Positions 2,504 to 20,013 of a stretch of 20,293 nt of DNA are shown here, one piece after another (positions within the stretch are counted from its first letter, which is position 1; each line of letters begins with the position of its first letter). The notes beneath the pieces were generated by a model. That model ran no database searches. It had not been told where the DNA came from and worked only from the letters and a program-made list of their open reading frames with translations. Position numbers and translations under genes: made by a program. The DNA is from a virus, in IMG/VR virus record IMGVR_UViG_3300043411_000178, positions 1-20,293 of that record. One strand, written 5' to 3'.

Positions 2504-2800
2504 CTACTCCCCTATTTCTAGACTAGCCTTCATAAACTCGGTGTTGTTGTGGATGTCTTCAAGCATACTAACAAAGTAATCGTTAGAGATACCCGACTCG
2601 CTCTCTGCTCGCTTAACGCAGTCCATCGAAAGTTCGGCTAACTCATTCACTTCATCGAGGATAACCTTTCTCAGACTGAAACAGACGTCATCAGGTAAGA
2701 ACTTATCACAATTAGTCTCCTTGAAGGACAATAGGATAGCGGAGGCTCGCCTGGCCCTTCGGTCGATCGCATCATTCAATTCTTCCGTTAAATCACTCAT
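2504..2800 (-). CDS. Small helical protein of unknown function
   Basis: A 98-residue acidic, probably all-helical protein starting MSDLTEELNDAIDRRARRAS. It contains DDVCFSLRKVILDEVNELAE and no recognisable domain, signal peptide or membrane segment. The ATG overlaps the HNH stop as ATGA, and the stop lies two bases before the next gene. Its place among the tail genes suggests a small virion or assembly protein, but nothing in the sequence shows that directly. Confidence 0.6.
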   Translation of the reverse strand: MSDLTEELNDAIDRRARRASAILLSFKETNCDKFLPDDVCFSLRKVILDEVNELAELSMDCVKRAESESGISNDYFVSMLEDIHNNTEFMKASLEIGE

Positions 2801-3441
2801 CCGTCATACCTTTCAAGAATTTCCTTGGCCCATACTACCAAATCTTCTACACGTTGACCGGCTGGTTGAGTCTTTACCCACAACTCCAAGTTCTCTGGTC
2901 TATTATCGGTACGAACACCATTCTTATGGTGGATATTCTCGCCCTTGACAAGGGGCCTACCGATTGTTTCTTCCATGACTAGGATATGTTCTAAAACATA
3001 TCCCTGCTTACTTGAACGTGGATGATCTGGACAAAGTTCTAGTGTATATCCGGCCGCATTAACAATGTATTGCTTCTTTTTCGGATACGACCTTTTAGCC
3101 AACCCAGTAACCCACCGCTCTGCTGCCCCGCAGGATCTACACATCTTAGATGTTCTAAGCTGCATTGGGCCGTGGCAGCGAGGGCACTCAAACATAGGTC
3201 GATTGTCCATAAACTTCTTACGAGTACAAGGAAGACAATTCCACTTATGTAGAGTTTCAAACTCAACTCCACACGTCTTACAGTCTCGCTTTACTGGATT
3301 AGCAGCCTTAGCGTCTTTATACTGTTGATACCTCCGCTTCGTGCGGATGGCAGTTACTTCCTTCTTACACTTCGCACAACGGGCTTGACCCTTACGATTC
3401 ACTGCCTCGTTAACGTTACATCTTCCACAAATTCTATTCAT
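2797..3441 (-). CDS. HNH homing endonuclease with three zinc fingers
   Basis: A 214-residue protein. Three C4 zinc-finger-like groups come first: C5-x2-C8/C22-x2-C25, C54-x2-C57/C69-x2-C72 and C86-x2-C89/C101-x2-C104. The nuclease core follows: YVLEHILVMEETIGRPL (148-164), then ENIHHKNGVRTDNRPENLEL (168-187), the typical HNH pattern of phage homing enzymes, with H152, H171, H172 and N180. It lies inside the connector/tail gene row and its stop overlaps the next start as ATGA, so the row stays coupled. Its own ribosome site is weak. It is a mobile gene with no expected structural role. Confidence 0.9.
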   Translation of the reverse strand: MNRICGRCNVNEAVNRKGQARCAKCKKEVTAIRTKRRYQQYKDAKAANPVKRDCKTCGVEFETLHKWNCLPCTRKKFMDNRPMFECPRCHGPMQLRTSKMCRSCGAAERWVTGLAKRSYPKKKQYIVNAAGYTLELCPDHPRSSKQGYVLEHILVMEETIGRPLVKGENIHHKNGVRTDNRPENLELWVKTQPAGQRVEDLVVWAKEILERYDG

Positions 3442-8677: not shown

Positions 8678-11365
8678 TCAGTCTGCTTTCTTAGTAATGT
8701 TCCGAGGAGCTTGGCCTTGGCCTTTTCCAGGAGCGGCTCCGCCCCCATTGGACCTACCTCCACCCATTCGACCTACATTCTTAGTATCGGCAGGAGCCTG
8801 ATCAGATCCATCGGGTCCCCCATCCGAGCCGGGAATTCCTTGATTATTGGGATTGATTGTCTCAAAGATGTCGTCCATCCCAGAATCCTTCTCATACTCA
8901 CGCCATCTAGCTTCATCATCTTGATCCATGTCGAACTCAGACAGAAGAGTCTCGCGAGAGATCTCATTCATGGCTCTAAGCTCAATCATGAAGGACGAAT
9001 AGCTTGGGTCGAACTCAAGAGCGATCTTCGAAGGAACGAACCTAAGAGTCGGATCCTCATCTAGGATATCGTTCTTCTCCATAATGCGCTCAAAAAGATT
9101 ACGCTCCAAGGCACGCTTAAGCTGATGGCGTGATGACTCAAGACCCTTACCAATGACTCGGGTAAGATCGCCAGACTTGTCACCCTTGGCCCCGGACGAG
9201 TTACCAGTCCAGAACACAGTCCCATTACGTCTTACAAGCCAGGTAGAATCAGGCGTGGTTGGGCACCAAACCTTGCCGGAGTAGTTAACCCAGTCAAAGT
9301 TCTTGTTGCTGATAGGCGAAGTGAACTCAGACTTCAATAGCGTGGTGGCAATGATAGGGTCCAGATCTCCAACTGGCTTACGAGTTGAGGTTCTAATTGG
9401 ACGACCCGAAAGAACAGCAGCCATCTCAAAGGCTCTCGTGAAGTCAGGGTTGTTGCTGAACATGGAGTTCTTACCACCAGAACGGCAACCGTCGGCATCA
9501 ACGCAAGTCTCAACAAACAAGTCAAGCTGCTTAGACGTCAACGAAGTCAAGAATTCAGGAGTAGGAACCTTATCAGGGGATACGGTATCCAGAAGAGAAG
9601 CGATGAACTCAGACTTTACAGCGAAATCCCTATTAGCCCCCGTTCCCCATTCGTTCCACTTGCCATCCGTGCCAGGTTCCCCAAAAAGGGTACCGCACAC
9701 GTTCCGAATTCTGTCACAAAGGGTCGGGTTCGCAGTTTCACTTTGAGACACAATCCTTCTCTCCCACGCCAACCCCCTGCTGTGGACGTAGCCTTCGGTC
9801 ACGTACCACGCAACAAACTCAACGAACTCATCCGAGAACGGTGAAATCACTGGAGCATCATGCGGTGCAGAAAGAGGAATACGTGAAGCAGTGTTCAATG
9901 TTTCCGAAGTCTTCCACATGTACCGAGTGCCATCTTGCTTTGTGAACCAACGGTGGTTCGGGGTAGACAAAGAGGAGTGGGACGCCGACTCCATTGAGAG
10001 CATCTTTCCATCATAATCAAATACATTAACCGCCTGCAGATCTTGCCAATGCGATCGCTGAGTGGCGGGATCCATTGTGAGGACTCGTTCACCCTTCTGC
10101 AACTGATCGTAGGTCTTCCACCCAGCAGAGGTCATAACCTCAGCATCAGGAGTCAAACAGTAGTTACCTGTCATGAGGATTCGATATAGACGTGCAGTTA
10201 GACGAGCATCAATCGTGTTATACTGCTCAGGCTTCAGAGTTGTATCAGTGCTTGGCGTGACGATCTCAATCTTCAATCGGTGATCACCAACAATAAGGGG
10301 CATACGTGCGAGCGAACGGGCATAGCCCTTCAGTGCATTAACTTCAGCAGGAGTAGCAGGACGCTTGTCCGTACCCTTCGTGATCACAATGATGAAGTTC
10401 GTAGCTGCAATCAGGTGGGTTCGATCTCGTTGACGCAGGTTGTTCTTGATGTCCAGAAGCTCAAACACGCTCTTAAGACGAACGTTTGCAAACTTCTGGT
10501 ATCCAGACTTAGTATCTGTATGACGCCACACGGACTCAGGGTTAAGAAGATAGAAGCTAGACGTTCCACCAACTGTACTGATTCCCATGTCAGCAAGCTG
10601 GTTTCTCTCAGACTGAGTAGGCTCGTACTTCTGAGTAATGATCTGCTTGATGATGAGGTCTTCTTCTTCACCTGCGAGAACCTTGTCGATTCCTAGAGAC
10701 TCCGAAGCGTCGGGCATGTAGAGAAGCTTCTCCTTGCCAAACCAGAACATACCGCAAGGTACGACCTTCATAGGGTCGAGCATGGTGATCCCGAGAGGAA
10801 CTTCCAAGCCAGTGAAGGTCTTCTTCTTCTTCTTGCCGGTGTCAGTCTTGCCACGTACCTTGAAGTTCTTGGTGCCCCACCAAATAGCAACGATAACCTG
10901 AGAGTAAGTAAACATCTCACGCCACATCTCACGCATACGAGAATCAAGATCTACCGTCTTGGCGATCTGATTCCAGATGTCTTCCTGATCTTGGTCTTGT
11001 AAATCGAACTTCATCTTTGAGAAAGCCAAAGACTCAGTAGTCTCCACAACGCCGGATACAACATCATCTGAAGCAACAGCATCGAACGCTACTTGGAATT
11101 GATCATATACGCTACCAGGCGTAAGATAACGATCACGGTTGAATATGCCGCCCAGTCTACGGGAACCAGAGTTGGCCTGCAGATCCGTGGCCCATTGTTG
11201 GATGGCGGCGACCTCGGGCGAATCGTAGATAGCCTTATATACATCAAGAGGGTCGACCTCGACGCCAGTATTATTGACGATCTCTGCAGATTTAATAGTT
11301 CGATCGACAAATTCCTCTACGGGCTCAGCCGAAGTCTCTAGATCAGGTCCGCTGCTACTCATCAT
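8678..11365 (-). CDS. Portal protein interrupted by an intein
   Basis: An 895-residue precursor. Residues 1-402 and 723-895 form a 575-residue portal extein; residues 403-722 are an intein. The N-terminal part has IFNRDRYLTPGSVYDQF and the helical stretches of portal rings, and later residues (LLDIKNNLRQRDRTHLIAATNF) resemble the portal stem/wing region of phages with long portals. The extein C-terminus, from about residue 840, is low-complexity and rich in Gly, Pro, Asp and Asn. The portal forms the dodecameric ring at the packaging vertex and docks the terminase; its place after terL and before the protease and scaffold supports the call. The joined extein reads MTGNYSSGAKGDKSGD across the insertion site. 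Two ATG codons open the ORF; the first shares a base with the previous stop. Confidence 0.85.
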   Translation of the reverse strand: MMSSSGPDLETSAEPVEEFVDRTIKSAEIVNNTGVEVDPLDVYKAIYDSPEVAAIQQWATDLQANSGSRRLGGIFNRDRYLTPGSVYDQFQVAFDAVASDDVVSGVVETTESLAFSKMKFDLQDQDQEDIWNQIAKTVDLDSRMREMWREMFTYSQVIVAIWWGTKNFKVRGKTDTGKKKKKTFTGLEVPLGITMLDPMKVVPCGMFWFGKEKLLYMPDASESLGIDKVLAGEEEDLIIKQIITQKYEPTQSERNQLADMGISTVGGTSSFYLLNPESVWRHTDTKSGYQKFANVRLKSVFELLDIKNNLRQRDRTHLIAATNFIIVITKGTDKRPATPAEVNALKGYARSLARMPLIVGDHRLKIEIVTPSTDTTLKPEQYNTIDARLTARLYRILMTGNYCLTPDAEVMTSAGWKTYDQLQKGERVLTMDPATQRSHWQDLQAVNVFDYDGKMLSMESASHSSLSTPNHRWFTKQDGTRYMWKTSETLNTASRIPLSAPHDAPVISPFSDEFVEFVAWYVTEGYVHSRGLAWERRIVSQSETANPTLCDRIRNVCGTLFGEPGTDGKWNEWGTGANRDFAVKSEFIASLLDTVSPDKVPTPEFLTSLTSKQLDLFVETCVDADGCRSGGKNSMFSNNPDFTRAFEMAAVLSGRPIRTSTRKPVGDLDPIIATTLLKSEFTSPISNKNFDWVNYSGKVWCPTTPDSTWLVRRNGTVFWTGNSSGAKGDKSGDLTRVIGKGLESSRHQLKRALERNLFERIMEKNDILDEDPTLRFVPSKIALEFDPSYSSFMIELRAMNEISRETLLSEFDMDQDDEARWREYEKDSGMDDIFETINPNNQGIPGSDGGPDGSDQAPADTKNVGRMGGGRSNGGGAAPGKGQGQAPRNITKKAD
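9200..10159 (-). other. Portal intein with LAGLIDADG endonuclease and mixed class signature
   Basis: Encodes 320 residues, from CLTPDAEVMTSAGWKTYDQL to VFWTGN, with Ser as the next extein residue. Position 1 is Cys, as in class 1 inteins. Block B is STPNHRWFT, with Thr, His and also Trp at B:12. Block F is KVWCPTTPDSTWLV, with Cys at F:4. The last residues are WTGN, with Thr two before Asn and Gly in place of the usual penultimate His. The endonuclease motifs are FVAWYVTEGYVH (115-126) and LFVETCVDADGC (214-225). Cys1 together with the Trp-Cys-Thr triplet leaves the splicing class open. Confidence 0.9.
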
Positions 11366-11725: not shown

Positions 11726-12754
11726 CTACCATCCTTCAAGGAAGTCATCGTACATTGGGACATCAATTACATCTTCTTGAGCCTGATTGCCAAGAAGCTT
11801 CTCAATCGGATATTGCTTCCATGCCAAAGCGGCCATGCGGGCGGCGTCGAGAACGTGGAAGTTTCCAGAAGAGTATCTTCTCTTCTTTCCGTACATATCC
11901 ATATCCGACTTTACAACCTGCATCTGCCCTTGGAAAGAAGCGAGCAGAGAATCGTCGAATGGCAGCCAGATGCGACCTTGATCCACCATCGTCCTAAGAA
12001 CGTCAGTGGCGTATATCTCAACGATAGCTTCGACTGCAGCTTCGTCTGCTGGATCATCAACCATTTCGTCGAAATCAACCCGTTCATCGAACCCGACTAC
12101 GATCTTAGAGCCAAACTTGTATCCTCGGATCTTCTCAACATAACCAACCGCAGCATCCTGCATGTCTTGGAACAGAGGAAGTCCGTTACCGGTAGCATCC
12201 ATTCCGAAACTTCTCATACCAGGGAAGTTCTTGAACAACCAAGAGATGACTCTCACTTGATCACTTGCCTTAACACGAACAAGCTGAACACGTGCAAGAA
12301 GCCTAAGGTAAGACTCTCCATCCGCAGGAACCTTCTTGCCAAACTTCTCCCGAAGCTTCTTTTCAGCCGCGTCCATCTGACACTCACCGAAGATGAGGAT
12401 CTCAGATGGATCGTTGGTGTAGCCTACGTCCATACCTCCCCAGAAACTCTTAATGGCTGAGTTAGGAACAGGAATGTGACGGGACAGCACAGACTCAACG
12501 TCACCGCCTGCATCATTGATGATCTCGGCAGTGATCCTAGTTTTGTTATACTCGTCACTGTTGTAGTCCGACTCGTTCTCAGTATCAATGCAGTTATGGA
12601 CAAGGACAGGCTTTTCCCCTGCATAGAACGAGGGATGTCCCTCTACCGTCAGGTCGTAACATAGGACATGATCTTTTCCACCACTGAGCTTGTTGAATTC
12701 ATCACTTCCATATTGGAGAACCTCAATACTGTCCACCCTTGAGATCTTAGCCAT
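11726..12754 (-). CDS. terL: Large terminase nuclease half, starting with a C-terminal split intein
   Basis: A 342-residue precursor: 54 residues of C-terminal split intein, then 288 residues of TerL beginning CIDTENESDYNSDEYN. The RNase H-like nuclease domain shows its acidic motifs in order: GGMDVGYTND (D109), FGMDATGNG (D186) and NFHVLDAARMAA (H300, D303). It cuts the DNA concatemer at the start and end of packaging and must be joined to the ATPase half by trans-splicing, leaving Cys at the junction. Spliced together, the three exteins total 68 + 202 + 288 = 558 residues, a normal TerL length. The ATG at 12754 lies inside the endonuclease gene and has only a moderate GAGAG site upstream. 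No other start fits, since the intein motifs begin just downstream. Confidence 0.92.
   Translation of the reverse strand: MAKISRVDSIEVLQYGSDEFNKLSGGKDHVLCYDLTVEGHPSFYAGEKPVLVHNCIDTENESDYNSDEYNKTRITAEIINDAGGDVESVLSRHIPVPNSAIKSFWGGMDVGYTNDPSEILIFGECQMDAAEKKLREKFGKKVPADGESYLRLLARVQLVRVKASDQVRVISWLFKNFPGMRSFGMDATGNGLPLFQDMQDAAVGYVEKIRGYKFGSKIVVGFDERVDFDEMVDDPADEAAVEAIVEIYATDVLRTMVDQGRIWLPFDDSLLASFQGQMQVVKSDMDMYGKKRRYSSGNFHVLDAARMAALAWKQYPIEKLLGNQAQEDVIDVPMYDDFLEGW
12593..12754 (-). other. C-terminal half of a split intein (TerL)
   Basis: The first 54 residues of the downstream terminase ORF, from MAKISRVDSIEVL to VLVHN. Block F is LCYDLTVEGHPSFYAG, with Asp at F:4 as in ordinary class 1 inteins. 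Block G is VLVHN followed by Cys as the first extein residue. It lacks blocks A and B, which are supplied by the upstream ORF ending at 13655. The first 106 bases are also the 3' end of the endonuclease gene in a different frame. Confidence 0.92.
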
Positions 12755-13845
12755 GTGTCTCTCTTTTCATCCTCATCGACAAAGTACTTATGGTTGTCGC
12801 CGTCTACTTCAATGGCGATCATATTATTTACATTCGCTATATCAAGATACATGTATACAACTCCAGACACTTCGCCTAAAGGGGCGCACCAATATTGTGG
12901 TTGCCAGTCAGAGCTGGATCCACCAAGTTCTTGCCAAAGCCTGAACTGAGGAATAGGCAGACCACCGGTTTGAATTGACTGCCATGGGGATTTGACATAC
13001 TCGGGCAATCTTCTAGAAGCGTAGCCACATGCCTTAGAGCAGAACCTTTGCGTTGGGCTGTTCGGCACAAACTGCAATGAGCACTCAACATAGTCGCAAT
13101 CCCTTGAAACGCGCCATTCAGGAGACTTCTGGTTTGCACACTTGGTTCCACAAAACCGAACCTTCTTGGATGTCCTATAGAAGGGATATCCACAACGTTC
13201 GCATTCACAGTATTCCTTGGTCTTGCGAGACGATGGGAGGGTATTCTCCCTAGCCCACGCCCCACTACAATCGCGAGAGCAGAACCGCTTGTTTCTACCA
13301 CTCTCTAATATTTCCCCGCACATCTCGCATTCACGAACCTTACAACGGTCTGGATTGCGAAAGTTATATGCACACTCAGTAGAACAGAACTTAACTTGAT
13401 CGCCGGAGATAGGGATATCACAATACTGACAAGCATCGAATCTTTGACGCGTCTTCTTTGAGTCTGCATTGCATCGGACGCTACAGTACTTCCTCTGATC
13501 CCCCTTGAGGTCCGATCCGCAGGTCAAACAAGCTACTTCCCGCTTCGCCCTAGCGCGAGCATCACGACACCACACAGAACAGTAAGCGGATCCTCGCCCC
13601 ATAATGGGCTCACTACATTCCTTACACCTCTTCTTATTAGCAAGAGATTCCTTCTCACCAAACTTCCTCATACAGCTTCTGCCGCAGAAACGCTTCGCTC
13701 GACTCTTCTCCGGAATCATCAACCCACAATTCTCGCACGTCTTCTGGCGAGAAGAGCTGATCTCCCGGTCGAAGTTCTCCAGCTTGGACCCATCCTCTTT
13801 GGGTGAAAATGGGGTGGTCTGGAGTACAGTAGAGTTCGTTCCCAT
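12649..13845 (-). CDS. Zinc-finger Vsr/EDxHD-like endonuclease between split TerL halves
   Basis: A 398-residue protein. Residues 37-273 hold seven tandem copies of a C-x2-C...C-x3-C module of about 30-40 residues, for example TCENCG...RFCGRSC, ACLTCG...KYCSVRC and ECEMCG...RFCSRDC; in the last copy the first pair is spaced C-x4-C. A nuclease-like domain follows: IPQFRLWQELGG, then MIAIEVDGDNHKYF and DEDEKRDTWLRSQGWTVLRF. E346, D348, H352, R362 and D363 fit the Vsr/DUF559-like fold and the EDxHD endonuclease family reported from split-intein loci. I chose the ATG at 13845 because AAGGTGG lies six bases upstream and because the next in-frame ATG would lose the first zinc-finger cysteines. The gene overlaps the upstream ORF by 191 bases and the downstream ORF by 106 bases. 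It is inferred to be the mobility enzyme of the locus. Confidence 0.85.
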   Translation of the reverse strand: MGTNSTVLQTTPFSPKEDGSKLENFDREISSSRQKTCENCGLMIPEKSRAKRFCGRSCMRKFGEKESLANKKRCKECSEPIMGRGSAYCSVWCRDARARAKREVACLTCGSDLKGDQRKYCSVRCNADSKKTRQRFDACQYCDIPISGDQVKFCSTECAYNFRNPDRCKVRECEMCGEILESGRNKRFCSRDCSGAWARENTLPSSRKTKEYCECERCGYPFYRTSKKVRFCGTKCANQKSPEWRVSRDCDYVECSLQFVPNSPTQRFCSKACGYASRRLPEYVKSPWQSIQTGGLPIPQFRLWQELGGSSSDWQPQYWCAPLGEVSGVVYMYLDIANVNNMIAIEVDGDNHKYFVDEDEKRDTWLRSQGWTVLRFSNMEVMNSTSSVVEKIMSYVTT

Positions 13846-16024
13846 CAACAACCACCTTACAAATAGTGTCATGCTTAGATTCGATGTTGTTCAACACCGT
13901 CCCATATCCAACGGCGTTTGCAACCTTTGAACCTATTTCGACATCTTGGATTGGAGTTGTAATGTCTCCATCCAACGTGAGGATGGGAGTATCCCGAAGT
14001 TGACAGCGCATGAGACGGTGGAGCACGAACAGGGGATTGGTGGCGTCACCGTGCTCACCGAGCACGTTGCGACGATAATCAGGGTCGTCTCTGGAGCCGT
14101 ACTCAGCAATCTTCTTCCTGCGAACAGTATCCGACCATTCTGGCGAGTGCATGGCGTAGATACGGTGAACCGTCCACTCAGTTTTCGGATCCGCGGATCG
14201 CTTGTAGAAGTCGTCCTGAACACCACGGGTTACACCGTGAGCACGCCATGAAGCCCCCGTCATACCTTGACGAAGGGTTTCAATGATCTCGGTCCAACCA
14301 GCGTGTGGGTAGTCCTGAGCCTCATCCTGCTCTAGCCAGATCGGGTGAGTTCCCTTAATTCCACGCCCATCTCTCTGAGGAATCTTGCCCAAGATACGAG
14401 CACCGTTGGCGAAGTTCATGATGAACGGTCGATGCGAAATCCTCGACCTATTCTTCAACAGCATCTCTTGAGCTAACCGTGTAGAAGTGAAGAGTTCTTC
14501 AATAATTCCAGTGATAGGCTGAAGGTGGTTAAGTTCAGGGGCAGTAACAACCATTTCCTGCTTAGGGTACAGGAATGGAAACGCATATGCCCTGAGCTGG
14601 ATGCTCTTGCTATTATGGGTAGGGATCATGGTTTCGCCAACCAAAAACAAACTACTAGGCCCCGACACCCTAATGCAGCGAACCGGAACGGAAGGTACCG
14701 GATCAACAGACTCAACGATTCTGTGGGTCAATTTGGTTCGACTTAGAGGAGATACTTCTTTTACTCTATCAGCTTTTCTCTTAATCTTGAACGGCTGGAT
14801 ATCCAGTGGCTTAAATCCTACCCTCCAAACAATACCAGCATCCACGCCATTACACCTTGCACGCTTTGAGCCAATAAAGGGCTTCTGACCCAGAGATGCC
14901 GCAAGCTCAAAAACGGACCTAGCTAGAAGTTCACTCTTGAATGTAATTTCACAACGGCCGCTTTTGCAGCAATGCCCATCGCTGTCCATGAGACCCTGAA
15001 GTAAACTGAGCCTTTGAGCCTCCGAACCTCTCATGTAAGATGTGGGCACGTGCTTGTTGTTGTGCAGGTTAAGCTTCTTCAGCATTCGATTCAATTCGAA
15101 TCCAACTAGATCCCCACGAATAGGACCACCAGCAGACGCTCTGTATTCACCACGAATAAACTGCGTAATAGAGGAAGGATAAAGGCCAAACTCTTTAGCG
15201 AGATCTCGTAATTCTTCCCCATTCTTGACCCGTATACGAATACTCCTTACATCCCCACTGCTGAGAGAATCCACACGAGGCTTAAATTCAGGATCATCCA
15301 ATACTGGAAGCTCTGTCCATACATCATGAACACCCTTTAGCCTGAGGGCGTATAGAATGTTGCCCTTGAGTTTATCCAAGGAGTATCCTTCAGAGTCTAA
15401 GATCTCTTCTACGTTCTTATAGTCTTCGTCACCGATCGTGAGCATAGCCCCCGCCGAATGACCATCTCCGAGCCAATAGCCAAGCAAATATGGAGACAAG
15501 ATTCCATAATCCTTGTCATCTATAGCAAGGGGCTTGGCAACATCAATTGAAGTTCCAAGAAGATCTTGAGTGGTTACTGTCTTCTTAGACTTGTCCCTAC
15601 GATTTCGGGAATTAACTACCCATTCGTGGTCGGCGTCAGCGATGATTTCAGACCCGTCACTGAATTTGACCTTGAAACAAGGTCGATCATTCATAACATC
15701 GAAGACTTCAAGTACATTAACAGGTTGACCTTGCTCGTTGAAGATAATGTCACCGACACGCAGCTCTCCCATTGTTGTCCAACCCTCTGGAGTTGGTACT
15801 TTCGTCACTGTGTGTAGTGCTTTGCCCACTGAGCGTGAGCACTGGTCAATCTGAAGAGTATCCGAACATCTCCACCACGCCACCTGGTATGGACGAGCGC
15901 GGAAACACCCATCAGTCTCCTCATCGACTGGAGCGTAGAGTGTAAGCTCTGCCAAGTCGATGCCGGATGGATCTTGGGTGATGGCGTACAGAGCGCATTC
16001 AGCGTCTGACAGGTTCTCTAACAT
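13655..16024 (-). CDS. terL: Large terminase ATPase half with class 3 intein, ending in an N-terminal split intein
   Basis: A 789-residue precursor. Residues 1-68 are the N-terminal extein, ending at the Walker A motif (SRSVGK). Residues 69-471 are a LAGLIDADG intein inserted within that motif. Residues 472-673 continue the ATPase: SKSIQL completes Walker A, WLEQDEAQ (563-570) is Walker B with the catalytic Glu, and HGVTRG is a probable coupling motif. The extein stops at NPLFVLHRLMR, and residues 674-789 are an N-terminal split intein beginning CQLRDTPILTLDG. The ORF then terminates, so the nuclease domain is missing from this polypeptide and is encoded separately at 11726-12754. The start lies three bases after the HTH gene with a weak Shine-Dalgarno site. 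After cis-splicing this half would supply the packaging motor ATPase; joining to the nuclease half requires trans-splicing. Confidence 0.92.
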   Translation of the reverse strand: MLENLSDAECALYAITQDPSGIDLAELTLYAPVDEETDGCFRARPYQVAWWRCSDTLQIDQCSRSVGKALHTVTKVPTPEGWTTMGELRVGDIIFNEQGQPVNVLEVFDVMNDRPCFKVKFSDGSEIIADADHEWVVNSRNRRDKSKKTVTTQDLLGTSIDVAKPLAIDDKDYGILSPYLLGYWLGDGHSAGAMLTIGDEDYKNVEEILDSEGYSLDKLKGNILYALRLKGVHDVWTELPVLDDPEFKPRVDSLSSGDVRSIRIRVKNGEELRDLAKEFGLYPSSITQFIRGEYRASAGGPIRGDLVGFELNRMLKKLNLHNNKHVPTSYMRGSEAQRLSLLQGLMDSDGHCCKSGRCEITFKSELLARSVFELAASLGQKPFIGSKRARCNGVDAGIVWRVGFKPLDIQPFKIKRKADRVKEVSPLSRTKLTHRIVESVDPVPSVPVRCIRVSGPSSLFLVGETMIPTHNSKSIQLRAYAFPFLYPKQEMVVTAPELNHLQPITGIIEELFTSTRLAQEMLLKNRSRISHRPFIMNFANGARILGKIPQRDGRGIKGTHPIWLEQDEAQDYPHAGWTEIIETLRQGMTGASWRAHGVTRGVQDDFYKRSADPKTEWTVHRIYAMHSPEWSDTVRRKKIAEYGSRDDPDYRRNVLGEHGDATNPLFVLHRLMRCQLRDTPILTLDGDITTPIQDVEIGSKVANAVGYGTVLNNIESKHDTICKVVVDGNELYCTPDHPIFTQRGWVQAGELRPGDQLFSPEDVRELWVDDSGEESSEAFLRQKLYEEVW
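13658..14005 (-). other. N-terminal half of a split intein (TerL)
   Basis: The last 116 residues of the upstream terminase ORF. Block A is CQLRDTPILTLDG with Cys1. Block B is LYCTPDHPIFT, with the usual Thr-x-x-His (T61, H64). GWVQAGELRPGDQLF follows, as in complete splicing domains. It stops after a charged tail ending YEEVW, without blocks F and G or any endonuclease domain. Its matching C-terminal half is at 12593-12754. The last 191 bases, including the stop, are also read in another frame by the inserted endonuclease gene, so the tail after about residue 54 is dual coded. Confidence 0.9.
14612..15820 (-). other. Class 3-type intein with LAGLIDADG endonuclease in the TerL Walker A motif
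   Basis: Encodes 403 residues. It begins ALHTVTKVPTPEGW, so position 1 is Ala rather than Cys or Ser, and ends IPTHN with Ser as the first residue of the following extein. Block B reads ADADHEWVV, with His at B:10 and Trp at B:12. Block F reads VPVRCIRVSG, with Cys at F:4. Block G has Thr two before the final Asn. This Trp-Cys-Thr set with a non-nucleophilic first residue is the class 3 signature, in which the block F Cys starts splicing. The homing endonuclease motifs are YLLGYWLGDG (111-120) and LLQGLMDSDG (273-282). A predicted helix-turn-helix (about 201-224, ELRDLAKEFGLYPSSITQFI) lies between them. Removing the intein restores SRSVGKSKS, an intact P-loop. Confidence 0.92.
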
Positions 16025-18827: not shown

Positions 18828-19471
18828 CCCGCACCCCTGATGTGATTCCACACGATGGGATGGACAACTGAGTTCCAACCTTGAGGAAGTTGATAGTCCT
18901 TCTTACTCAGAAAAAGAATGTTCTGCTTATACCAAGGCTCAACGTCAGAATTATCCCACGTCAACTTCCTAATGAAATCCGACACATACTTGAACCCATG
19001 AGACTGAAACTTCTCAACCCAATAGTCAGGCCACTGCTCGTTAAGGTGTCCGACGCCCCCCTGACCCGGAATCGCTGCCGAGAACAGAAGGTGATCCGCA
19101 GATCCAGCCACCTGGGCCACGTACGCATCTGCATTATTGGGGTGAACATGCTCCGCTACTTCCAAAGACACTGCCAGGTCCCACTTGCCCTCCACCGGAT
19201 CAAGCGAATCGAAATTGATGGATCCAAACTCAGCATCATCGATCAACAACCTTGATCGGTCCACATACTCCCCATCAAATCCCTTAACCTTGAACCCGTC
19301 CTCTTTAAAGGCTCTCAGCCAAGCCCCCTGTCCGCATCCCCAATCAACCACACTAAGATCAGACACACTCAGATGTTTGTTGAGAGTTTGACGAACAACA
19401 GGAACAATAACCTTAGCGGACTTGTAGCTACCATCATTTATCATGTCAAAAAACTCATCATTGTAAATCAT
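18824..19471 (-). CDS. Class I SAM-dependent methyltransferase
   Basis: A 215-residue protein with a Rossmann-type methyltransferase core. Motif I is VVDWGCGQG (41-49), the usual S-adenosylmethionine-binding glycine loop. FDGEYVD (65-71) supplies the acidic residue after strand 2, and LEVAEHVHP (103-111) is the motif common in small-molecule and sugar methyltransferases. I chose the ATG at 19471: it overlaps the stop of the HNH gene as ATGA, is preceded by AGAAGG at a good distance, and gives the family-like start MIYNDEFFDMINDGSYKSA. An ATG at 19498 in the same frame would add nine residues and also has a weak Shine-Dalgarno site. No DNA-methylase catalytic motif such as DPPY or PC is visible, so the substrate is more likely a sugar or glycan than DNA. 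The flanking glycosyltransferases support that inference. Confidence 0.8.
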   Translation of the reverse strand: MIYNDEFFDMINDGSYKSAKVIVPVVRQTLNKHLSVSDLSVVDWGCGQGAWLRAFKEDGFKVKGFDGEYVDRSRLLIDDAEFGSINFDSLDPVEGKWDLAVSLEVAEHVHPNNADAYVAQVAGSADHLLFSAAIPGQGGVGHLNEQWPDYWVEKFQSHGFKYVSDFIRKLTWDNSDVEPWYKQNILFLSKKDYQLPQGWNSVVHPIVWNHIRGAG

Positions 19472-20013
19472 ACCGTCATCCTTCTGGTTTGTAGCCATTC
19501 GTTCCTACATGTTCGACACAATCGTCTCAAATTGGGATAGGTATATGTGTTCTCGGGAGTGAAAGAATGACCCTTAGTGCAAGCCTCAGATTGAGGACGA
19601 ATAGAACGAGGGATTCGTCGTGAGTTCTCCGCGGGAGTAACCGGTTCTAGATGATCCGGATTTACACAATTGCGAATTCGACATAGGTGATCCAAATGCA
19701 GTTCACTCGACACCGCTCCAACCAAATGCTCATAACCCCACCGATGGGCGCTTGCAACTTTCTTTCCTTGATCATGAAATTGCCCATACCCAGTAGCTTG
19801 AAATAAGCAAGCCGTCCACAACCAACAAGGGCCCAACTCGGGTGCATAGACAGGGATCGGACCATTCTTGTCGACCTTATCCATCCATCTAGACAAAGAA
19901 GATTGACGATCTGTCCTACCCGTCCGCTTAAGCCTTTGATAATGCTTAGAGCACAGACCGCGAGCGATAGCACATAGATCGCAATCCTCCACGGAGCTGT
20001 CATACTGTGTCAT
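19468..20013 (-). CDS. Free-standing HNH endonuclease with zinc-binding motifs
   Basis: A 181-residue protein. An N-terminal segment with CDLC (11-14) and RGLCSKHYQRL (19-29) resembles the zinc-binding start of many phage HNH proteins. A central CWLWT segment (63-67) precedes the HNH core, LDHLCRIRNCVNPDHLEPV (107-125), with H109, N118 and H121 as likely metal and catalytic residues and C111/C116 as extra ligands. A C-terminal C145/H149...C166-x2-C169 group looks like a second zinc site. The gene sits inside a glycosyltransferase/methyltransferase cassette and shares ATGA overlaps with the gene before it and, if the internal start is used, with the gene after it. It is therefore probably a homing endonuclease that entered an operon without breaking it. 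A role in DNA packaging, known for some terminase-linked HNH proteins, is less likely here. Confidence 0.85.
   Translation of the reverse strand: MTQYDSSVEDCDLCAIARGLCSKHYQRLKRTGRTDRQSSLSRWMDKVDKNGPIPVYAPELGPCWLWTACLFQATGYGQFHDQGKKVASAHRWGYEHLVGAVSSELHLDHLCRIRNCVNPDHLEPVTPAENSRRIPRSIRPQSEACTKGHSFTPENTYTYPNLRRLCRTCRNEWLQTRRMTV

What the first reader, a model, noticed from the sequence alone, without database searches (positions are those of the whole stretch)
14612..15820. Ala1 class 3 intein sitting in the Walker A motif of TerL
Ala at position 1, Trp after the block B His, Cys at F:4 and Thr in block G together match class 3 inteins, which use the block F Cys to begin splicing. The insertion point (SRSVGK / SKS) breaks the P-loop, so the ATPase is inactive until splicing. 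The same polypeptide then ends in a split intein with class 1 features, so one TerL needs two different splicing chemistries.
Basis: partly seen in the sequence, partly recalled or inferred. Interest (0 to 1): 0.78.

Follow-up and report, generated by a model that had tools for sequence, protein, structure and literature searches.

The report
Class 3 intein in phage packaging motor

Summary
Window 14612-15820 (minus strand) encodes a 403-aa intein between the Lys and Ser of the TerL Walker A motif (SRSVGK|SKS). It has Ala1, Trp67 (B:12), Cys382 (F:4), Thr401 (G:5), a His-Asn end and +1 Ser. Its closest solved relatives are the class 3 DnaB inteins of M. chimaera and M. smegmatis, and Cys382 aligns with the catalytic Cys118 of the latter. 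The host is a divergent TerL; seven relatives have both insertion sites empty. A class 1 split intein with a zinc-finger/DUF559 gene between its halves follows in the same TerL.

The anatomy is not unusual. Of 79 IMG/VR class 3 relatives checked, at least 59 have GK directly before the intein, and most hosts are terminases. Inteins at the K|T position of mycobacteriophage TerL are published, and M. smegmatis DnaB already combines a P-loop class 3 and a class 1 intein. Four other phage TerLs here combine a class 3 with a Cys1 intein. Not found elsewhere: a class 3 cis-intein together with a split class 1 intein in one TerL. Verdict: supported, a new member of a known kind. Splicing itself is untested.

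The parts
15821..16024 (-). TerL N-extein (aa 1-68), ends ...CSRSVGK (first part of Walker A)
   Evidence: aligns with intein-free TerL of GX15bay and relatives
14612..15820 (-). class 3 cis-intein, 403 aa, with LAGLIDADG endonuclease domain
15611..15628 (-). block B HEWVVN (His65, Trp67 = B:12)
14666..14683 (-). block F VRCIRV (Cys382 = F:4, predicted first nucleophile)
14612..14623 (-). block G PTHN (Thr401 = G:5, His402, Asn403)
15461..15487 (-). LAGLIDADG motif 1 (LLGYWLGDG)
   Evidence: Asp119 conserved in 76 of 78 relatives
14975..15004 (-). LAGLIDADG motif 2 (LLQGLMDSDG)
   Evidence: PF14528 E 4.5e-4 on the intein; Asp281 conserved in 78 of 78
15155..15220 (-). helix-turn-helix-like insert between the LAGLIDADG motifs (intein aa about 201-222)
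   Evidence: weak: phrog_517 HTH E 0.003, HTH_38 E 0.055; two predicted helices, low confidence
14006..14611 (-). TerL extein, rest of the ATPase domain (SKS..., Walker B-like IWLEQDEAQD, ...LMR)
   Evidence: 61% identical to GX15bay TerL
13658..14005 (-). IntN half of a class 1 split intein (Cys1, TPDH block B)
   Evidence: PF14890 E 7e-7 on P0001; PDB hits to Mtu RecA, gp41-1 and NrdJ-1 inteins
12649..13872 (-). free-standing zinc-finger/DUF559 gene between the intein halves, probable homing endonuclease; its ORF overlaps both halves
   Evidence: DUF559 E 8e-14; start codon uncertain
12593..12754 (-). IntC half of the split intein (YDLTV, HN, +1 Cys)
   Evidence: TIGR01443 above its cut-off
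11726..12592 (-). TerL C-terminal extein, RNase H-like nuclease domain
   Evidence: aligns with GX15bay and IMG/VR TerLs; the model of a relative matches solved TerL nucleases

Best explanation
It is a mobile class 3 cis-intein with a LAGLIDADG endonuclease, sitting between Lys and Ser of the TerL P-loop. Inferred course: after translation the intein folds, His65 helps activate Cys382, and Cys382 attacks the Lys(-1)-Ala1 bond to form a branched thioester. Ser+1 of the C-extein takes over the N-extein, Asn403 cyclises, and an ester-to-amide shift rebuilds CSRSVGKSKS. Separately IntN (end of the same ORF) pairs with IntC (start of the next TerL ORF) and trans-splices by the class 1 route, joining ATPase to nuclease. 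Only the two events together give a complete TerL. The endonuclease most likely copies the intein into empty TerL alleles during co-infection. Shown by sequence: anatomy, class signature, junctions, empty alleles. Inferred: chemistry, activity, order of events.
For: Exact junctions and A1/W67/C382/T401/H402/N403/S+1. Class 3 crystal structures are the nearest solved relatives by sequence, and the model's splicing domain matches 6bs8 at Z 22.9, rmsd 1.2 A, 46% identity over 124 residues, against Z 19 and 27-29% for gp41-1 (model pLDDT 87.8). Trp, Cys and Thr invariant in 78 of 78 IMG/VR relatives. Window groups with 21 class 3 inteins against 8 class 1 inteins across a 99/96 branch. L037, the same TerL family, carries a class 3 intein at the same K|S site and is its nearest row in the tree. 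Both sites are empty in GX15bay and L023-L028. Lower G+C of the intein (0.46) than of the flanking TerL stretches (0.54, 0.53) fits later arrival. Host is a TerL: phrog_5909 terminase matches 7 of 8 alignment members; Foldseek top hits are T4 gp17, G20c, Sf6 and HK97 TerL.
Against: No splicing or cleavage was measured. Grafting WCT onto a class 1 intein did not give productive class 3 splicing (PMC7664689), so the signature alone is not proof. The AU test did not reject a tree holding the window with the class 1 inteins (p 0.38). The 78 relatives were retrieved with class 3 queries, so their uniformity is partly selection. The TerL model has low confidence in the ATPase domain. Pfam does not recognise this TerL's ATPase stretch.
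Confidence: 0.93

Rival explanations
1. The intein splices by a class 2-like route: Ser+1 attacks the N-junction directly and the block F Cys is only structural.
For: Position 1 is not a nucleophile, as in class 2; the intein L055_c1, which starts with Cys1, also has Cys at F:4, so Cys there is not by itself diagnostic.
Against: All of W67, C382 and T401 are present, the triplet that marks class 3 (PMC5050341, PMC7891396), and the nearest solved relatives are class 3.
Confidence: 0.04
2. The inteins are kept because splicing is a switch: class 3 splicing (with a possible Cys48-Cys382 redox trap, as in M. smegmatis DnaBi1) and trans-splicing time TerL assembly during infection.
For: Cys48 is present in the window and in 56 of 78 relatives; M. 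smegmatis DnaBi1 is inhibited by a Cys48-Cys118 disulfide (PMC6195587); insertion in the P-loop would keep the ATPase off (inference).
Against: An intact LAGLIDADG domain and empty alleles in close relatives are what a selfish, constitutively splicing element predicts; the five TerL inteins tested by Kelley et al. spliced quickly (PMC5050341).
Confidence: 0.1
3. The intein, or the fractured TerL, is decayed and the window is a dead or misassembled terL.
For: The record is a 20-kb virus fragment with no coverage data here; TerL is split over two ORFs with a third overlapping both.
Against: No stops or frameshifts, all catalytic residues kept in both inteins, TerL motifs kept in the exteins, and split halves with a gene between them match the known fractured-gene plan (PMC7891396).
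Confidence: 0.03

Closest known systems
TerL1-a inteins of mycobacteriophages (Kelley et al. 2016, PMC5050341), e.g. the intein of Miniwave TerL read here
   Same: Inserted between Lys and Ser/Thr of the TerL P-loop; Miniwave's has Ala1, W, C and T by alignment
   Different: Different TerL family, no HTH-like insert, no split intein in the same protein; assigning Miniwave to TerL1-a is my inference from the junction
Class 3 intein in TerL of IMG/VR record L037
   Same: Same TerL family, identical K|S insertion site, nearest row in the tree
   Different: TerL not fractured; no HTH-like insert
M. smegmatis DnaB with DnaBi1 (class 3, P-loop) and DnaBi2 (class 1) (PMC6195587)
   Same: Two inteins of class 3 and class 1 in one P-loop ATPase; Cys48 and Cys118 have counterparts in the window
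   Different: Bacterial helicase; both inteins are in cis; DnaBi1 lacks an endonuclease
L055, L097, L071, L075 phage TerLs
   Same: A class 3 intein (in L055, L097 and L075 right after GK) plus an intein starting with Cys in the same TerL
   Different: Their Cys1 inteins lie within one ORF; L055 carries three inteins
Fractured-gene split inteins with an intervening homing endonuclease (AceL NrdHF, PMC7891396; gp41-1, NrdJ-1 and AceL-TerL from own knowledge)
   Same: Split intein halves on two host-gene fragments with a free-standing endonuclease gene between
   Different: AceL NrdHF is itself a split class 3 with a GIY-YIG gene; here the split intein is class 1 with a zinc-finger/DUF559 gene

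Membership tests
class 3 intein | no Cys/Ser nucleophile at intein position 1 | tested here: met
   Ala1
class 3 intein | Trp at B:12 | tested here: met
   Trp67, same column in 78 of 78 relatives
class 3 intein | Cys at F:4 | tested here: met
   Cys382 aligns with Cys118 of 6bs8 and is invariant in 78 of 78
class 3 intein | Thr at G:5, then His-Asn, and Ser/Thr/Cys at +1 | tested here: met
   PTHN|S
class 3 intein | sequence and fold group with solved class 3 inteins rather than class 1 | tested here: met
   the AU test on splicing blocks alone was not decisive (p 0.38)
class 3 intein | splicing depends on the block F Cys through a branched thioester | not testable with these tools
   needs protein chemistry
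LAGLIDADG homing intein | two LAGLIDADG motifs with their acidic residues | tested here: met
   Asp119 and Asp281; whole model matches PI-SceI, Z 26.7
LAGLIDADG homing intein | cleaves the empty allele | not testable with these tools
   empty alleles exist but cleavage was not assayed
phage large terminase (TerL) | P-loop and Walker B ATPase followed by RNase H-like nuclease | tested here: met
   RSxGKS and IWLExDEA in the family alignment; phrog_5909; Foldseek top hits are TerLs, although the ATPase part of the model is weak
class 1 split intein / fractured gene | IntN with Cys1 and TxxH, IntC with Asp at F:4 and HN|C, on two ORFs with a gene between | tested here: met
class 1 split intein / fractured gene | trans-splicing | not testable with these tools
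   needs co-expression

The most novel reading that the evidence does not exclude
A phage terminase whose maturation needs a redox-sensitive class 3 cis-splicing event in its P-loop and a class 1 trans-splicing event joining ATPase to nuclease, so that splicing gates DNA packaging.
Probability: 0.08. Interest if true: 0.55.

Novelty: new member of a known kind. Interest (0 to 1): 0.27.

Why it matters
It adds one well-defined example to the evidence that class 3 inteins favour the terminase P-loop across unrelated TerL families. It also provides a natural pair for comparing class 3 cis- and class 1 trans-splicing inside a single protein, which could serve as two orthogonal ligation steps. It does not change the picture of intein biology.

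Tried and rejected
Close relatives of the intein, of TerL-C and of IntN were sought in IMG/VR with single-protein queries: no relatives; a two-sequence TerL alignment worked. GTDB genome contigs: none. PDB search with the TerL family profile found no terminase; fold comparison did. The Dassa 2009 fractured-gene paper is not held, so statements about it rest on papers that cite it and on own knowledge. Rejected: class 1 or class 2 intein, intron, decayed ORF. A second fold job on the TerL relative gave only a partial model (pLDDT 58.7). The HTH-like insert has weak family support only and low model confidence, so it is not claimed firmly.

Full report
Observation. The window is a 20,293-base virus record. 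On the minus strand, ORF 13655-16024 encodes 789 aa without a stop. Residues 69-471 are the intein, 403 aa, window 14612-15820, exactly the stated coordinates. The N-extein ends CSRSVGK and the C-extein starts SKSIQLR, so the insertion lies between the Walker A Lys and Ser. By intein numbering the key residues are Ala1, Asp62, His65, Trp67, Cys382, Thr401, His402 and Asn403, with Ser at +1.

Class. Against PDB sequences the best matches are the class 3 DnaB inteins 6rix and 6riy (M. chimaera) and 6bs8 (M. smegmatis), E 5e-27 to 9e-26. In the alignment VPVRCIRV lies on VPVRCVEV, which puts Cys382 on residue 118 of 6bs8, the published catalytic Cys118 (PMC6195587). An AlphaFold2 model from 54 sequences has mean pLDDT 87.8. 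Its splicing domain matches 6bs8 at Z 22.9, rmsd 1.2 A and 46% identity, ahead of gp41-1 (Z about 19, 27-29%); the whole chain matches PI-SceI, an intein with a LAGLIDADG endonuclease. In 78 IMG/VR relatives Trp, Cys and Thr of the triplet are all invariant, with the caution that they were fetched with class 3 queries. On splicing blocks the window lies with 21 class 3 inteins, separated from 8 class 1 inteins by a 99/96 branch, but an AU test did not reject moving it (p 0.38). The signature is therefore solid and the chemistry inferred: grafting WCT onto a class 1 intein did not give productive splicing (PMC7664689).

Host. The host is a divergent TerL. Its nearest annotated relative is the terminase of GX15bay, 61% identical over the ATPase part after the intein. 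Six IMG/VR relatives, L023-L028, have neither intein. Pfam barely sees the family, but phrog_5909 (terminase large subunit) matches 7 of 8 members of the alignment. A model of the intein-free relative L023, although weak in the ATPase part, matches T4 gp17, G20c, Sf6 and HK97 TerL first.

Same site elsewhere. L037 carries a class 3 intein at the same K|S position of the same TerL family and is the nearest row in the tree, weakly supported. L029 has two class 1 inteins, one three to four residues upstream at SR|SVGKS and one next to Walker B. So the P-loop of this TerL family has been invaded at least twice by different kinds of intein.

How common it is. In annotated phages the same K|S/T junction with a class 3 intein occurs in Makalu002, Kae01, RaK2, Slicko01, Mwe-JY05, Miniwave, CMP1, BF486P1 and B124-14 (some of these records are annotated only as hypothetical protein or HNH endonuclease domain protein). 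Of 79 IMG/VR loci examined for the junction, at least 59 have GK immediately before the intein. Their C-exteins match terminase families of several types: TerL_ATPase 24, Terminase_6N 17, GpA_ATPase 14 and Terminase_3 4 of 77 members, and PHROG terminases likewise. Kelley et al. report that the commonest mycobacteriophage TerL sites are in the P-loop, TerL1-a lying between the invariant Lys and the Thr (PMC5050341).

The second intein. The ORF ends in an IntN (aa 674-789, window 13658-14005) with Cys1 and TPDH. The next TerL ORF starts with an IntC (12593-12754) with YDLTV and HN before a +1 Cys. Between them is a zinc-finger/DUF559 gene whose ORF overlaps both halves. IntN resembles class 1 inteins (Mtu RecA, gp41-1, NrdJ-1). 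The break lies between ATPase and nuclease domains; the site is empty in all relatives, three of which already have Cys at the +1 position (L023-L025).

Two chemistries in one protein. M. smegmatis DnaB has a class 3 intein in its P-loop and a class 1 intein elsewhere (PMC6195587). A class 3 cis-intein with a split class 1 intein in one TerL was not seen elsewhere, but my search could not show that it is unique.

Function. The most likely reading is a selfish element: both LAGLIDADG acidic residues are kept, empty alleles exist, and the intein has lower G+C than the flanking TerL stretches. A switch is possible but unsupported. Cys48, which forms the redox trap with the catalytic Cys in M. smegmatis DnaBi1, is present here and in 56 of 78 relatives.

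Verdict. The finding is a new member of a known and abundant kind, with one mildly unusual feature, the added split class 1 intein.

Noticed in passing
window 15113-15301 (intein aa 174-236); L033, L042, L047, L048, L049, L050, L054, L058; L040, L044, L045: Class 3 phage inteins often carry an extra module between the two LAGLIDADG motifs: zinc-knuckle-like (CxRGH...CxxC) in 18 of 78 relatives, and a possible HTH in the window, L040, L044 and L045.
   Followed up: partly
intein residue 48, window 15677-15679: Cys48, described as non-conserved in the M. smegmatis DnaBi1 redox trap, is present in the window and 56 of 78 phage class 3 relatives.
   Followed up: partly
L055 (ORF of 1248 aa): A single TerL with three inteins: class 3 in the P-loop, a second class 3 after VMVEGE, and a class 1 mini-intein next to Walker B (YIW|C...N|CDE).
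   Followed up: partly
window 9200-10159 (-): The portal gene carries a 320-aa intein with Cys1, TPNH, Cys at F:4 and a penultimate Gly (WTGN|S), so neighbouring packaging genes hold three inteins.
   Followed up: partly
window 12649-13872 (-): The gene between the split intein halves has repeated zinc-finger-like CxxC...FCxxxC motifs and a C-terminal DUF559 domain; its ORF overlaps the coding regions of both intein halves in another frame.
   Followed up: partly
L029 4660-8496: A relative TerL with two class 1 inteins, one just upstream of the window's site (SR|SVGKS) and one beside Walker B.
   Followed up: partly
window 2797-3441 (-) and 19468-20013 (-): Two further HNH_3 endonuclease genes in the same 20 kb, so the region is rich in mobile endonucleases.
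   Followed up: no
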